Positions 14,484-21,660 of a stretch of DNA of 45,859 nucleotides are shown piece by piece (position 1 is the stretch's first letter; each line of letters opens with the position of its first letter). This DNA is from Acidobacteriota bacterium (GTDB lineage Bacteria; Acidobacteriota; Thermoanaerobaculia; Thermoanaerobaculales; Thermoanaerobaculaceae). The notes under the pieces are model-generated. The model saw only the letters and a list, made by a program, of their open reading frames with translations, was not told the origin of the DNA and did not search any database. Location of the stretch: the NCBI GenBank assembly GCA_003158745.1, contig PMLC01000009.1, positions 1-45,859 of the forward strand, read 5' to 3'. The translations under genes and the position numbers were made by a program.

Positions 14484-16190
14484 CTATGCCACCTCCACCT
14501 GACCCAAGGGTATCAGGTCGCCTGTCCGGACGGCCGCAAGAAACGCCCTCACGATGTTTGGGTCGAGCCGGTTCCCGGCCATCTGGCCGATCCGCTTGAA
14601 CACGAAGTCGAGGCGCATGGCCTGCTGGTACGGCCGCTGGGTCGTCATGGCGTCGAACACGTCAGCCGCGGCAATGATCCGGGCGACGAGCGGGATTTGT
14701 TCTCCGACAAGACCATCCGGGTAGCCGCCACCGCTCCAGTTCTCGTGGTGCGAGCGGATGCCGGGCAACATCTCGCGCAGCCGCTTGATCGGGCTGACGA
14801 TCGCCGCGCCCTTGACGGTGTGGACCCGCATCTGTGCAAACTCCGGGTCGGTCAGAGCCTCCGGCTTTGTGAGGATCGCATCGTCGATGCCGATCTTGCC
14901 GACGTCGTGGAGGAGGGCTGCGATCTCCACCTTTTGCAACTCGGAGCCTTCGATGCCGCACTGGCGCGCGATCGCGACCGCGTACTGGCTCACACGTTCG
15001 GAGTGACCGCTGGTGTATGGGTTCTTGGCGTCGATCGCCGCCGCGAGCGCCCGGATCGAGTCGACGAGGAGCTCCTTGTTCTCGGCAAGGGCCTCCTGGA
15101 GCGAAGACACGGTCCGCGCGATCTCGACCGCCATCACGTTGAAGTTGTCCGCCAGCTGCCCGAGCTCGTTGCGCGATGTGACCGGCACCTTGCGGGAGAA
15201 GTCGCCCTGGGCCACCGCAGTGCTCACGTCGGCGAGGTGGCGCAAGGGGGAGGTGATGCGGCGGGCCACCAGCACTCCGGCCAGCGTCGCCAGCAACCCG
15301 GTGGCTATCGCCAGCAATGCGGTCTTCTCCGCCATGCTGCGTACGGCTGCGAACGCGACGCTCACGTCGCGCGCGGTCACCACGGCCCACGGCGGGTCCT
15401 CCACCGGGCACAGAGAGCCGAGGACCTCGTCGTTTGCGGACCGCAGCGGATCCCGGTAGGTCTTCGTCAGGCGCACCGGCGCTTCGAGGAACTGGGCGAC
15501 CAGCGGATGAGACGCGGCGGATTTACCCACGTGGCTTTGGTCGTTCGAGAACACGACGTCGCCGGCCCGGTCGACCACGTCGACCGTCATACCCTTGCCG
15601 CTCTCCTCGGCGAGCCGCGAGACCAGCCCCTCGAGCGATACCACGCCCTGCATCGCACCTGAGACACCGCCATCCGCACTCCGCAGCGGGATGGAAACCA
15701 CCACCATCGTGTCCTCGTTCGCGAGCCGAACGAGTTCGCGCCGTACCGGCCTCCCGCTCATGTTCTCGGTGAACGCGTTGCTCAGAGCAAGCTCAAGCTC
15801 GTGCTCGGCGGCCGGAGCCATCGTCCGATTCTGGACAAACGATCCCTTGCCCGACGAGTCCAGCAACCGAAGCAACACGATGTGCCTGTTCTCGTTGACC
15901 AGTTCGTTGAGAGCCTGCGCGGCGCCGGCGCCGGCCTGGCCGCCCGCGATACTGAGCGCCCTGGCCACCGCCTCAATCCGACCGACGCTGTCGAGGAAAT
16001 ACAACTCGACCTCGCGTGCCAACCCGACGGACTGGCGCGTCAGGTACTGCATCTCGAGCGTCGCGACCTGTTCCCGGTTCGAACTCACGAACGCCCACCC
16101 CGCGAGGGCGACAGGCAGAACGGTCAGACCCACCAACAGTGCCGTCAGGGGGTATAGCAGCGAGCGGGAAAATGGCCATCGAGGAGACAT
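14484..16190 (-). CDS. HD-GYP c-di-GMP phosphodiesterase with Cache-like sensor and HAMP
   Basis: A 568-aa inner-membrane signalling protein. TM1 (~12-32), a periplasmic double-Cache-like sensor (~35-280), TM2 (~295-318), HAMP (ARRITSPLRHLADVSTAVAQ), a short coiled coil, then HD-GYP (~385-560). Catalytic motifs are complete: GHSERV, HDVGKIGI, MRVHTVKG, RSHHENWSGGGYPDGL and AAADVFDAMTTQRPYQ. It should hydrolyse c-di-GMP to pGpG or GMP in response to an external ligand. The frame is open to 17813 across the divergent gene; ATG 16190 starts the first TM segment. No Shine-Dalgarno is visible. Confidence 0.9.
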   Translation of the reverse strand: MSPRWPFSRSLLYPLTALLVGLTVLPVALAGWAFVSSNREQVATLEMQYLTRQSVGLAREVELYFLDSVGRIEAVARALSIAGGQAGAGAAQALNELVNENRHIVLLRLLDSSGKGSFVQNRTMAPAAEHELELALSNAFTENMSGRPVRRELVRLANEDTMVVVSIPLRSADGGVSGAMQGVVSLEGLVSRLAEESGKGMTVDVVDRAGDVVFSNDQSHVGKSAASHPLVAQFLEAPVRLTKTYRDPLRSANDEVLGSLCPVEDPPWAVVTARDVSVAFAAVRSMAEKTALLAIATGLLATLAGVLVARRITSPLRHLADVSTAVAQGDFSRKVPVTSRNELGQLADNFNVMAVEIARTVSSLQEALAENKELLVDSIRALAAAIDAKNPYTSGHSERVSQYAVAIARQCGIEGSELQKVEIAALLHDVGKIGIDDAILTKPEALTDPEFAQMRVHTVKGAAIVSPIKRLREMLPGIRSHHENWSGGGYPDGLVGEQIPLVARIIAAADVFDAMTTQRPYQQAMRLDFVFKRIGQMAGNRLDPNIVRAFLAAVRTGDLIPLGQVEVA

Positions 16191-16208: not shown

Positions 16209-16232
16209 GCATGCCAAGGTCTGGTGGGCACA

Positions 16233-17918
16233 ATGGATAGCTGCCGCAGGGCCGCCGCGGCGCTCGAGGAACTGGCGCTTCTCTCCGAGTTGGCCGGCGA
16301 GAACCCCTTCAAGGTCCGCGCCTTGGCGAACGCCGCCCGAGCAGTGCTGCGTTTCCCGGAGGACCTCGAAGGGGTCTCTGCAAGGGGAGAACTGACCGCG
16401 ATCCCGGGAATCGGCAAGGGGATTGCGGGGCTGATCGAGGAGACGCTCGCCCAAGGCGAACCGGCCGCGCTCTTGGAGCTGAGGAGTGTGCTCCCGCCCG
16501 GCCTCCCGGGCCTGCTGCAGCTCACCGGCCTTGGTCCCAAGCGCGTGCGCAACCTCTGGCAGGAGCTCGGGATCACGACCGTCGGTGAGCTCGAGTACGC
16601 CTGCCGGGAGAACCACCTCCTCACGCTCGCGGGGTTCGGCCCAGCGACCCAGGCCAAAATTCTGGGCGCCATCGAATTCCGCCGCAGCACCTCCGACAAG
16701 CACCACATCTCGACCGGATGGCACGCGGCGGAGGAGACGCTCGCCATCCTCCGGGAAGTGGCGCCGGACGGCACGGCGGAGGTGGCAGGCGAGGTGCGCC
16801 GCTTCTGCGAGGTCATCAGCGAGGCCGTCGTGGTCTGCACCGACGTCGAGCCGGCGGCCCTCCTTCCTGCGTTGGCCCGGCTGCTGAACGACGCGATTGG
16901 AGACGGCTCCGGCCAGGTCACGGGGCGCCATGCCTCGGGCGTCCCGGTGCGCGTGGTGAGCGTTCCGCGTGGATCGTTCGGCACAGCGATCGTCTGGCAA
17001 ACCGGCAGCGGTCGCCACCTCGAGCAGCTCGCCGCGCGCGCCTTCTCGGGCGGCCTCGTTCTCGCTGGCGGCGTGCTCAGCGACGCGTCGGGCCGCGAGG
17101 TCGAGTGCCCCGGAGAGCGCAACCTCTACGCCAGAATCGGCCTGCCGTGGATCCCGCCCGAGATTCGCGAGGGGGACGGCGAGGTCGAGGCCGCCGCCAA
17201 CGGAATCCTGCCCGACCTGGTAGGCGAGAGCGACGTCCTGGGCGCGGTCCACGTCCACACCACGGACTCCGACGGGACGGCCTCGCTGGAAGAGATGGCC
17301 GAGGCGGCGGCGCAACTCGGATGGTCGCTGCTGGGCATCGCGGACCACTCGCAGGTTGCGGCGTACGCTCACGGACTCGATGCGACTCGGTTGCGCGCCC
17401 AGGGCGAGGCGATCGCAGCCCGCAACGGCCGTGGCGAGAGACCGCTGCTGTTGCGCGGGATCGAGGCGGACATCCTGGCGGACGGCGCGCTCGACCTCCC
17501 CGGCGAGGTGCCGCTCGACTTCGTGGTGGCCTCGGTCCACTCCTCGTTCCGGCAGAGCGTCGAGGCGCAGACCGCGCGCCTCGTGCGGGCGGTCTCGCGC
17601 GGGCGCGGCACGATACTCGGCCACCCGACGGGCCGCCTGTTGCTCGCCCGCGAGGGGTACCAGGTCGATCTCGAGGTCGTGCTGCAGGCGGCTGCGGCGA
17701 GCGGTGCCGCCGTCGAGATCAACGCTCACCCCTTCCGCCTCGATCTCGACTGGCGCTGGGTCCGCCGCGCGGTCGGTCTCGGCGTGCCGATCTCGATCGG
17801 CCCCGACGCACACGAGCCCGCCGGTCTCGCCGACGTGCGCTGGGGCGTGGGCATCGCCCGCAAGGGGTGGGCCACCGCCAAGGATGTGCTCAACGCCAGA
17901 CCCTGGCCTTGGTGGTGA
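16233..17918 (+). CDS. PolX-like protein with degenerate polymerase and intact PHP domain
   Basis: A 561-aa protein with bacterial PolX architecture. HhH-rich 8-kDa/fingers region (1-~150, IPGIGKGIAG and LTGLGPKRVRNL); polymerase palm (~165-300); PHP domain (~330-561). In the palm the family DxD reads ExV (AGEVRRFCEVISEAVVV against AGS-RR-x5-GDxD) and the third Asp site reads VRVV, so all three catalytic Asp are gone. The PHP metal residues survive: VHVHTTDSDG, IADHS, GIEAD, ASVHSSF, GHPTG, INAHPFRLDLDW, GPDAHEP. It is probably a repair nuclease, not a polymerase. ATG 16233 (GGTGGG upstream) is preferred to GTG 16224. Confidence 0.85.
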   Translation: MDSCRRAAAALEELALLSELAGENPFKVRALANAARAVLRFPEDLEGVSARGELTAIPGIGKGIAGLIEETLAQGEPAALLELRSVLPPGLPGLLQLTGLGPKRVRNLWQELGITTVGELEYACRENHLLTLAGFGPATQAKILGAIEFRRSTSDKHHISTGWHAAEETLAILREVAPDGTAEVAGEVRRFCEVISEAVVVCTDVEPAALLPALARLLNDAIGDGSGQVTGRHASGVPVRVVSVPRGSFGTAIVWQTGSGRHLEQLAARAFSGGLVLAGGVLSDASGREVECPGERNLYARIGLPWIPPEIREGDGEVEAAANGILPDLVGESDVLGAVHVHTTDSDGTASLEEMAEAAAQLGWSLLGIADHSQVAAYAHGLDATRLRAQGEAIAARNGRGERPLLLRGIEADILADGALDLPGEVPLDFVVASVHSSFRQSVEAQTARLVRAVSRGRGTILGHPTGRLLLAREGYQVDLEVVLQAAAASGAAVEINAHPFRLDLDWRWVRRAVGLGVPISIGPDAHEPAGLADVRWGVGIARKGWATAKDVLNARPWPWW

Positions 17919-18107: not shown

Positions 18108-18518
18108 ATGGCAAACCCAGTCACCTTCGTGTACGACCAAACGCGGAACCTTGTCTTCAGCGAGGACCACGGGAAGCTCGAGACCGAGGAGCAGGTCGAC
18201 GCGTTCCTCGACGAGTACCGGCGCTACTGGGAGGCGCTCGGCAAGAAATCCTGGCTCATCACGAACATCGACGACCTGTTCGTCGACGGCCAGGTGGCCG
18301 ACCACTACGCGGAGGGCTCGCTCCGGATCATGGCCAGGCATCTCCTTGGCTTCGCCCGTTGGGCAACCAACAGCTGGGCGCGAATGTCGGTGCGTACGAC
18401 CGCGCTCAAGGCCAGGATGCCGGCGGCGATCTACTCGTCGCGCGCCGAGGCCGAGGCAGCCATCGAGGAGATGCGGCGCACCGGCTACCGGTGGGAGCCG
18501 GACGAGCATCCCCGGTAG
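18108..18518 (+). CDS. Small soluble protein, SpoIIAA/STAS-like fold possible
   Basis: A 136-aa protein I do not recognise. It begins with a beta hairpin (VTFVYDQTRNLVFSEDHG), then a helix, a strand (KSWLITNIDDLFVD) and a long basic helical stretch (SLRIMARHLLGFARWATNSWARMSVRTTALK), ending with a short helix and strand. The order resembles SpoIIAA/STAS-like domains, but that is a guess. GGAGGG at ~18097 supports ATG 18108. Convergent with the threonine aldolase gene. Confidence 0.6.
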   Translation: MANPVTFVYDQTRNLVFSEDHGKLETEEQVDAFLDEYRRYWEALGKKSWLITNIDDLFVDGQVADHYAEGSLRIMARHLLGFARWATNSWARMSVRTTALKARMPAAIYSSRAEAEAAIEEMRRTGYRWEPDEHPR

Positions 18519-18555: not shown

Positions 18556-19599
<1,044 letters not shown>

Positions 19600-19625
19600 C
19601 GAGAAGACCCCCCTCAACAAGAAGA

Positions 19626-19786
19626 GCCAACAGCCGACAGCTTACAGCTCTCCCCCACCCACCCAGCCACCCAGTTCACAGTCGACAGTTCCCCCACCCA
19701 CCCAAGTAGGGGAAAGGCAGCTTTGAGTTTCTGACTGTCGACTGTCAACTGTCGACTGTCGACTGTTGGCTGTGAGCTGTCAGCTT
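19626..19786. repeat. Interspersed hairpin element, copy 1 (ACAGCTCTCCCCC type)
   Basis: First of three related elements. Order: AGCCAACAGCCGACAG, the shared core ACAGCTCTCCCCC (19644-19656), ACAGTCGACAGTTCCCCC (19678-19695), then a run of CTGTCGA/CTGTCAA 7-mers (19731-19766) and GGCTGTGAGCTGTCAGC. The two halves are complementary. The right end reaches into the udg reading frame on the minus strand and encodes its last ~13 residues and stop. The other copies are at 28053-28199 and 40691-40878. Confidence 0.8.
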
Positions 19787-20461
19787 CGCTTTGAGCTTCT
19801 TCAGGTCGCTCCACGACTCGCGCTTGGCAGCCGGGTTCCGCAACAGGTAGGCGGGGTGATACGTCGGGAGCACGTCGCGCCCCATCCACTTCGTCCACCG
19901 GCCCCGGTAGCTGGAGATCGGCGCGGTGGTGCCGAGCAGGTAGCGCGCCGCGATGCGGCCAAGGCAGACGATCACGACCGGGTCGATCAGCTCGATCTGG
20001 CGCTTGAGGAAAGGCATGCAGGCGGCCGCCTCGTCGGGCTCGGGATCTCGGTTCCCGGGAGGTCGGCACTTCACGACGTTGGCGATGTAAACGTCTGCGC
20101 GCTTGAGGCCGATCGACGGCAGCATCGCGTTGAGGAGCTGGCCGGCCCTCCCGACGAAAGGTTCGCCGAGCCGGTCCTCGTCGGCCCCCGGACCTTCGCC
20201 CATAAAGACGACGCGGGCGCCCGGGTTGCCGACGCCGAACACGACTTGCGTGCGCCCCTGGCATAGTCTGCAGCGCTTGCACCCCGCGAGCGCGCGGGCC
20301 ATCGCCCCGAGGTCGGCCGCAGCGAGCGGGTCATCGCCACCGACGGTTTCCGGTTCGCCGGCCGACTCGGGGCGGGACGTGGCTTTCGGAGACGCCAGCG
20401 CGACGTCCACGTCCCGCCAGCCGAGGTCGCGCAGGTACACGAGGAGGTCGCGGCGGCTCAT
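19745..20461 (-). CDS. udg: Family 4 uracil-DNA glycosylase (Fe-S)
   Basis: A 238-aa glycosylase that excises uracil from DNA. Family 4 motifs are complete: CKRC...C and KCRPPGNRDPEPDEAAAC (the [4Fe-4S] cysteines), GEGPGADEDRLGEPFVGRAG (motif A) and PTYHPAYLLRN (motif B with catalytic-region His). ATG 20461 overlaps the coaBC stop as ATGA. Oddity: the last residues (LTAHSQQSTVDS) and the stop are encoded by the interspersed hairpin element, so the native C-terminus was probably replaced. The frame extends upstream to 20860 only by reading coaBC out of frame. Confidence 0.92.
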   Translation of the reverse strand: MSRRDLLVYLRDLGWRDVDVALASPKATSRPESAGEPETVGGDDPLAAADLGAMARALAGCKRCRLCQGRTQVVFGVGNPGARVVFMGEGPGADEDRLGEPFVGRAGQLLNAMLPSIGLKRADVYIANVVKCRPPGNRDPEPDEAAACMPFLKRQIELIDPVVIVCLGRIAARYLLGTTAPISSYRGRWTKWMGRDVLPTYHPAYLLRNPAAKRESWSDLKKLKAKLTAHSQQSTVDS

Positions 20462-21660
20462 GGGCGGCGCGACGCCACCGTCTCGCCCGCGAGTGTGAGG
20501 AGCAGCTCGCGGGCGAGCGTTTCCTTGTCCTGGGCCACGAACTCCCTGCGGAGCCCGAGGCGCGTCCTCACGACGGCGCGGTTCCGAGCGGACTCCATTC
20601 CGAGGCCGGGCTCGTCGATCGGGTTGGCGACCACTGCATCGGCGGCTTTGTCGGCCATCTTCCTGGCGGCGTGGACCTCGAGGTCCACGGCCCGTTCTGC
20701 GGCGAAGATCACGAGGTACGGCCTGCCCTGGGCCCTGGGCATCGTCGCGGCGAGGTCGGGCACCGGCTGCAACGCGAGCTGAAACCCGCCCAGTCGGCGG
20801 TCGAGCTTCCCGGGTGCCGCTCCCGCCGGCCGGAAGTCGGCCACTGCCGCGGCGTGCCATACGGCGTCTGCCTCGGGCGCTCGCCGGCCGAGCAGGTGGC
20901 CCAGGTCCACCGCCGTCTCGAAGCGCTCGGTCGGAACGCCCGGCACCGCGTTCACGCCGGGGCCGGCGAGGAGCCGCACGTCGGCACCGAGGTCGCGCGC
21001 GGCCAATGCCAGCGATCTGCCCATACGGCCCGACGAGCGGTTTGTGATCACCCTGACAGCGTCGATCGACTCGCGGGTGGGGCCGGCCGTGACGAGGATC
21101 CGGACCCCGGCCAGCGGCCCTCGCGGCGGAAGAGCGGCCAGCGCCACGCCCACGATCTCGTCAACCGGCGCGAGCTTGCCCTCGCCGATCTCGCCCTCCG
21201 CCAGGAAGCCGGATACGGGCTGCACGACGATGGTGCCCCGCTGCTCGAGGACCGCAACCGCCTGCACGATCGCGGGCTGACGCCACATCGCGGTGTTCAT
21301 CGCCGGCGCGATGACGACCCTGCCGCGGTGGGCGAGCGCATAGGTGGTGAGTGCGTCGTCGGCGATGCCGGCGGCCATCTTGGCGATGACGTTCGCGGTG
21401 GCCGGGACGACGACGAGCAGATCGCTGCAGCGCCCCAGCGCCACGTGATCGACGCCGGGGTTGGTGGGGGCGCTCCACAGCGAAACCTCGGCGCCCTCGT
21501 TCGAGAGCACGGCGAAGGTCCGCGGCGCGACGAACTGCGTTGCGTTGTCAGTGAGGATCGTGTGGACGCGGCAGCCGGCCTTGACGAGCCCGCGCAGCAC
21601 CTCGACCGCGCGGAACGCCGCGATGCCGCCAGAGACGCCGAGGACAACCCTGCCGCGCAC
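20458..21660 (-). CDS. coaBC: Coenzyme A biosynthesis bifunctional protein CoaBC
   Basis: A 400-aa flavoprotein: phosphopantothenoylcysteine decarboxylase (CoaC, 1-~180) fused to phosphopantothenate-cysteine ligase (CoaB, ~190-400). CoaC has GVSGGIAAFRAVE, DHVALGRCSDLLVVVPATAN (active-site His) and APAMNTAMW. The flap usually written GxLACGxxGxGR reads GFLAEGEIGEGK, so glutamate replaces the usual catalytic Cys. CoaB has TAGPTRESIDAVRVITNRSSG, AAVADFRP and KMADKAADAVVANPI. GTG 21660 directly abuts the rpoZ stop, with its GAGGAG inside the end of rpoZ. Confidence 0.93.
   Translation of the reverse strand: MRGRVVLGVSGGIAAFRAVEVLRGLVKAGCRVHTILTDNATQFVAPRTFAVLSNEGAEVSLWSAPTNPGVDHVALGRCSDLLVVVPATANVIAKMAAGIADDALTTYALAHRGRVVIAPAMNTAMWRQPAIVQAVAVLEQRGTIVVQPVSGFLAEGEIGEGKLAPVDEIVGVALAALPPRGPLAGVRILVTAGPTRESIDAVRVITNRSSGRMGRSLALAARDLGADVRLLAGPGVNAVPGVPTERFETAVDLGHLLGRRAPEADAVWHAAAVADFRPAGAAPGKLDRRLGGFQLALQPVPDLAATMPRAQGRPYLVIFAAERAVDLEVHAARKMADKAADAVVANPIDEPGLGMESARNRAVVRTRLGLRREFVAQDKETLARELLLTLAGETVASRRP

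What the first reader, a model, noticed from the sequence alone, without database searches (positions are those of the whole stretch)
16233..17918. PolX protein with dead polymerase but intact PHP nuclease
Seen: palm Asp residues replaced (DxD to ExV, third Asp to Arg-containing VRVV) while all PHP metal motifs and the HhH DNA-binding region remain. Known: PolX PHP domains have 3'-5' exonuclease and AP-type activities in gap repair. Inference: the protein has become a structure-guided repair nuclease with a non-catalytic palm.
Basis: partly seen in the sequence, partly recalled or inferred. Interest (0 to 1): 0.6.

Follow-up and report, generated by a model that had tools for sequence, protein, structure and literature searches.

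The report
Polymerase-dead PolX with intact PHP nuclease
This gene encodes a DNA-repair protein that has lost its DNA-building site but kept its DNA-trimming site; it belongs to a class of bacterial proteins already described, and its pattern of presence suggests it may stand in for another repair enzyme, exonuclease III.

Summary
The 564-aa protein is a full-length bacterial PolX. Its palm triad DxD...D reads ExV...R; all nine PHP metal ligands and the six PHP residues tested in B. subtilis PolX are present. The state is shared by 8 of 8 readable genus copies and 13 of 13 copies in the sister family, so it is not a sequencing or alignment error. The class is published: 'noncanonical PolX' (PMC9226535), polymerase-inactive and exonuclease-active in two Deinococcus enzymes. 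So: a new member of a known kind, very likely from an Acidobacteriota order. New here, and unproven: (1) the suggested service to Ku/LigD end joining does not fit, since 0 of 37 genomes of the order have Ku. (2) The genus kept PolX and lacks exonuclease III (9 of 9), whereas 8 of 8 PolX-less relatives of the family have exonuclease III and show HD-GYP directly beside UDG, with no PolX between; the trade-off recurs across the phylum but is not special to dead palms. (3) The third Asp is replaced by Arg unusually often (30 of 77 dead PolXs; 4 and 3 of 77 at the other two Asp). Most likely role: Mn-dependent 3'-end and abasic-site nuclease in base-excision or oxidative-damage repair.

The parts
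16224..17918 (+). PolX gene, 564 aa (GTG 16224; ATG alternative at 16233)
16251..16460 (+). 8-kDa helix-hairpin-helix domain (HHH_8), residues 10-79
16512..16664 (+). second helix-hairpin-helix region (HHH_5), residues 97-147
16701..16973 (+). degenerate palm, about residues 160-250; nearly full length (84 residues against a canonical mean of 87.7 over the same columns)
16788..16802 (+). GEVRR (residues 189-193) in place of the dNTP motif GSxRR
16821..16829 (+). E200-A-V202 in place of the catalytic DxD
16950..16952 (+). R243 in place of the third catalytic Asp
16986..17171 (+). fingers domain (Pfam DNA_pol_B_thumb), residues 255-316
17235..17903 (+). PHP nuclease domain, residues 338-560; ligands H343 H345 D350 H375 E414 H439 H467 D528 H530; DNA-path residues F442 R471 R476 N500 R505 K547
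14484..16160 (-). divergent dCache-HAMP-HD-GYP gene (the part searched); next to PolX in 8 of 9 genus genomes (the ninth at contig ends) and in 13 of 13 PolX genomes of the sister family
18556..19620 (-). beta-eliminating lyase, convergent with PolX
19745..20860 (-). ORF carrying a uracil-DNA glycosylase domain (residues 208-354); directly beside HD-GYP in the 8 PolX-less genomes of the family

Best explanation
A noncanonical PolX. The palm can no longer bind the two catalytic metals and cannot make DNA (inferred from residues). The helix-hairpin-helix, palm and fingers parts are kept as a folded scaffold that probably holds nicked, gapped or frayed DNA. The PHP domain is the only live active site: it probably trims 3' ends, removes 3' blocks and cuts abasic sites with Mn2+. 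In this genus, which has no Ku and no exonuclease III, it most likely supplies exonuclease-III-like 3'-end and AP-site work beside endonuclease IV. Shown here: sequence state, its sharing among relatives, predicted fold, selection pattern, gene presence and absence. Inferred: enzyme activity, the DNA-holding role, the pathway. The dead-polymerase, live-nuclease part is the firm part; the exonuclease III part is about even odds.
For: Triad EVR, nine PHP ligands intact; the six B. subtilis PHP residues whose loss cripples the nuclease are all present (residues from PMC6616362, abstract and passages). AlphaFold model pLDDT 93.1, close to T. thermophilus PolX 3au6_A, Z 45.5, rmsd 4.0 over 543 residues. 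Genus dN/dS (6 sequences, 15 pairs): PHP 0.11-0.24, palm 0.25-0.70, fingers 0.31-0.78. At matched PHP divergence the palm/PHP ratio is higher in dead than in canonical PolXs in every bin (e.g. 3.35 vs 1.86; 2.45 vs 1.29). No Ku and no LigD_N in 37 of 37 genomes of the order. Exonuclease III absent in 9 of 9 genus genomes, present in 16 of 16 PolX-less relatives; no PF03372 match in the own genome. PolX-less relatives of the family show HD-GYP directly beside UDG, 8 of 8. In D. radiodurans, whose PolX is noncanonical, polX mutants show no significant difference in H2O2 resistance but the polX xth double mutant is less resistant (PMC7548837, passages).
Against: No assay. The PolX/exonuclease III trade-off is not specific to dead palms: canonical 75 without and 49 with xth, dead 18 without and 23 with. 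In the sister family 9 of 13 PolX genomes keep xth. The phylum test is only roughly corrected for descent (family level p 0.003, conservative count 0.024). D. radiodurans PolX was reported not to take part in BER (PMC9226535 discussion). The UDG neighbourhood was seen only in this family.
Confidence: 0.8

Rival explanations
1. The protein works in double-strand-break repair or end joining, as proposed for noncanonical PolXs in general.
For: Published enrichment of noncanonical PolX in genomes with Ku and LigD, and a role of D. radiodurans PolX after gamma irradiation (PMC9226535).
Against: Ku and LigD_N absent in 37 of 37 genomes of the order, own genome included. A Ku-independent role in break repair is not excluded.
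Confidence: 0.15
2. The palm is not fully dead: E200 and other acids might bind one metal and give weak, Mn-dependent nucleotide transfer.
For: E200 is kept in 6 of 6 complete genus copies; D. radiodurans PolX (AEE) was once reported to have polymerase activity (cited in PMC9226535).
Against: Two of three metal ligands are replaced by non-acids, one by Arg; the dNTP and fingers motifs are altered too. The authors of PMC9226535 found no polymerase activity in the Deinococcus enzymes.
Confidence: 0.05
3. Decaying pseudogene or assembly artefact.
For: None found beyond the missing triad.
Against: Open frame, PHP dN/dS 0.11-0.24, same triad in independent genomes.
Confidence: 0.01

Closest known systems
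Noncanonical PolX (Prostova et al. 2022, PMC9226535), e.g. D. radiodurans PolX (PDB 2w9m)
   Same: Loss of the acidic palm triad, altered dNTP motifs, intact PHP ligands, full 8-kDa domain
   Different: Palm and fingers hardly shortened here; triad EVR rather than AEE; no Ku in the order; exonuclease III absent in the genus, present in D. radiodurans (DR_0354, PMC7548837)
Canonical bacterial PolX (T. thermophilus 3au6; B. subtilis PolX)
   Same: Domain order, fold, PHP ligands and DNA-path residues
   Different: Catalytic triad DDD and GSxRR motif lost
PolX-like PHP proteins (PMC12926913)
   Same: PHP nuclease without polymerase function
   Different: Those lack the polymerase domain altogether; here it is retained

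Membership tests
Bacterial PolX | 8-kDa HhH, palm, fingers and PHP domains in one chain | tested here: met
   Pfam domains except palm; fold match over 543 residues to 3au6_A
Noncanonical PolX | Substitution of the acidic triad | tested here: met
   EVR
Noncanonical PolX | Substitutions in the dNTP-binding motifs | tested here: met
   GEVRR and WQTGSGRHL
Noncanonical PolX | Intact PHP ligands | tested here: met
   HHDHEHHDH
Noncanonical PolX | Deletions in palm or fingers (in many members, not a requirement in the paper) | tested here: not met
   84 and 66 residues over the reference columns, canonical means 87.7 and 66.4
Noncanonical PolX | No polymerase activity, active exonuclease | not testable with these tools
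   needs an assay
Noncanonical PolX | Falls in the main noncanonical cluster | tested here: inconclusive
   In an all-dead clade of 31 with D. radiodurans and Bacteroidota, support only 0.353; clade with the sister family 0.951
Ku/LigD end-joining accessory | Ku in the genome | tested here: not met
   0 of 37 genomes of the order; the control search rings in B. subtilis

The most novel reading that the evidence does not exclude
PolX is a standing substitute for exonuclease III: both were present in the ancestor and were lost reciprocally in sister lineages, and polymerase-dead PolXs show which part of PolX is being selected. In addition the dead palm is not random debris: a convergent Asp-to-Arg change at the third metal site, usually with an acid kept at one of the other two, may put a guanidinium where the metal was and turn the palm into a metal-free DNA clamp for the PHP nuclease.
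Probability: 0.25. Interest if true: 0.6.

Novelty: new member of a known kind. Interest (0 to 1): 0.33.

Why it matters
The protein itself adds a lineage to a published class. What could matter more is the comparison around it: a clean case in which dead PolX persists without Ku, with exonuclease III absent in the lineage that kept PolX and present in the relatives without it. That makes the disputed role of bacterial PolX (end joining or base-excision repair) directly testable by complementation.

Tried and rejected
Sequencing or alignment error: rejected. A second, canonical PolX in the own genome: none; the only other match is a PHP-only protein. A Ku/LigD role: no Ku. A broken endonuclease IV in the own genome, which would have left PolX alone: looked so from split matches, but the gap is a run of 78 Ns, so nothing can be said; nfo is found in 8 of 9 genus genomes. 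Exonuclease III absence as a mark of dead palms: rejected, the trade-off concerns PolX in general. A shift of the motif that would make R243 the canonical R245: rejected for the window, the stretch is gapless between flanking anchors; 12 of 77 dead sequences do have indels there, and 28 of the 30 Arg cases do not. Arg at the third site as a proven convergence: not proven. Of 18 loss clades, 8 contain Arg at site three, 4 at site one, 1 at site two (my count), and the 76 added cross-phylum sequences were picked by similarity to the window protein.

Rows left out: L103 from the tree; 37 of the 186 PolX genomes were not aligned, as the listing of places was cut; four xth matches under the curated cut-off were counted as absent; 'PolX present' was set by me at E < 1e-44; PHP-only matches fall below that. 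Paper searches on PolX and exonuclease III; the listings show no paper on a genome-wide trade-off, but only this open library was searched.

Full report
What is there. The window holds a 564-aa PolX gene at 16224-17918 (+). Pfam finds two helix-hairpin-helix regions, the fingers (Pfam 'thumb') and the PHP domain, but no palm. The closest solved structures by sequence are the PolXs of D. radiodurans and T. thermophilus. The AlphaFold model (pLDDT 93.1) matches T. thermophilus PolX 3au6_A at Z 45.5, rmsd 4.0 over 543 residues, and D. radiodurans 2w9m_B at Z 40.7 with a different domain arrangement (rmsd 15.7). So the palm is folded and nearly full length, yet its three metal-binding Asp are Glu200, Val202 and Arg243, and the nucleotide-binding motifs have changed as well. 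All nine PHP ligands and six DNA-path residues are present (the six residues from PMC6616362, abstract and passages).

Shared by relatives. Nine of nine genus genomes have PolX; the triad is EVR in seven, ELR in one and unreadable at one site in the ninth. Thirteen of thirteen PolX copies in the sister family are also dead, with varied triads. The divergent HD-GYP neighbour is next to PolX in 8 of 9 genus genomes and 13 of 13 sister-family PolX genomes (coordinates), so the locus is inherited from a common ancestor and the palm was probably dead before the families split. On a tree of 243 PolXs built without palm and fingers columns, dead palms need at least 17 changes (18 losses if loss is irreversible) against a mean of 65 with shuffled labels. 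The grouping of this clade with D. radiodurans and Bacteroidota has support of only 0.353.

Selection. Among six complete genus copies dN/dS is 0.11-0.24 in PHP, 0.25-0.70 in the palm and 0.31-0.78 in the fingers (15 pairs). At equal PHP divergence, palm and fingers differ more between dead PolXs than between canonical ones in every bin (the pairs are not independent). The nuclease is what selection holds.

What it is for. Noncanonical PolXs have been linked to Ku/LigD end joining (PMC9226535; abstract, sections 11, 15, 16 and passages read). That link fails here: neither Ku nor LigD_N occurs in the 37 genomes of the order. Instead, exonuclease III (TIGR00633) is absent from all nine genus genomes and present in all 16 of the 39 relatives without full-length PolX. 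In the eight PolX-less genomes of the same family, HD-GYP lies directly beside UDG with no PolX between. Both enzymes co-occur in 9 of 13 PolX genomes of the sister family. The simplest history is an ancestor with both, followed by reciprocal loss; the direction is inferred. Over 395 genomes of the phylum (at least 90% complete), 100 of 186 PolX genomes lack xth, against 35 of 209 without PolX. With families as units: 30 of 59 against 4 of 25, p 0.003, or 26 of 59 against 4 of 25, p 0.024, if any genome of the family counts. Against a special role of the dead palm: canonical PolX shows the trade-off at least as strongly (75 of 124 sequences in genomes without xth, dead 18 of 41, one of 166 unreadable). 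The published D. radiodurans double mutant polX xth, less resistant to peroxide where the polX single mutant is not, agrees with a backup role (PMC7548837, passages).

The Arg. Among 77 dead PolXs the third Asp is Arg in 30; the first and second are Arg in 4 and 3. Of 114 palm and fingers columns with under 5% Arg in canonical PolXs, this one has the most Arg in dead PolXs (39%, column mean 3.7%), with 13 parsimony changes. An acid remains at site one or two in 28 of 30 Arg cases and in 29 of 47 others (p 0.003, not corrected for descent). The paper says such substitutions are diverse and include arginine; I saw no mention of this bias in the parts read. It is a lead, limited by sampling that favoured relatives of the window protein.

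Verdict. Observation confirmed, interpretation supported, class already known; a new member of a known kind with two testable side findings.

Noticed in passing
G000:C69:3514-4227 (locus L002, ORF 1456-2511 -, 351 aa): A second protein whose C-terminal part matches the PolX PHP domain (39% identity) with no polymerase part; similar PHP-only matches in 34 of the 39 relatives by my count. It resembles the 'PolX-like' proteins that PMC12926913 calls almost exclusive to Actinobacteria, but scores below the PRK07945 cut-off.
   Followed up: partly
window 19745-20860 (-): Uracil-DNA glycosylase-superfamily gene close to PolX in the six genus loci long enough to show it; CoaBC and an Rpb6/omega-type ORF follow.
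   Followed up: partly
window 18108-18518 (+): A 136-aa ORF between PolX and the lyase whose translation looks protein-like; not searched against families.
   Followed up: no
L005 / G007:C47:27435-28934: The PolX copy of this genus genome has unknown residues at the first triad site, so its triad is unreadable there.
   Followed up: no
G000:C3, about 93418-93494 (locus L285): The own genome's endonuclease IV gene is interrupted by 78 Ns, so its integrity is unknown.
   Followed up: yes
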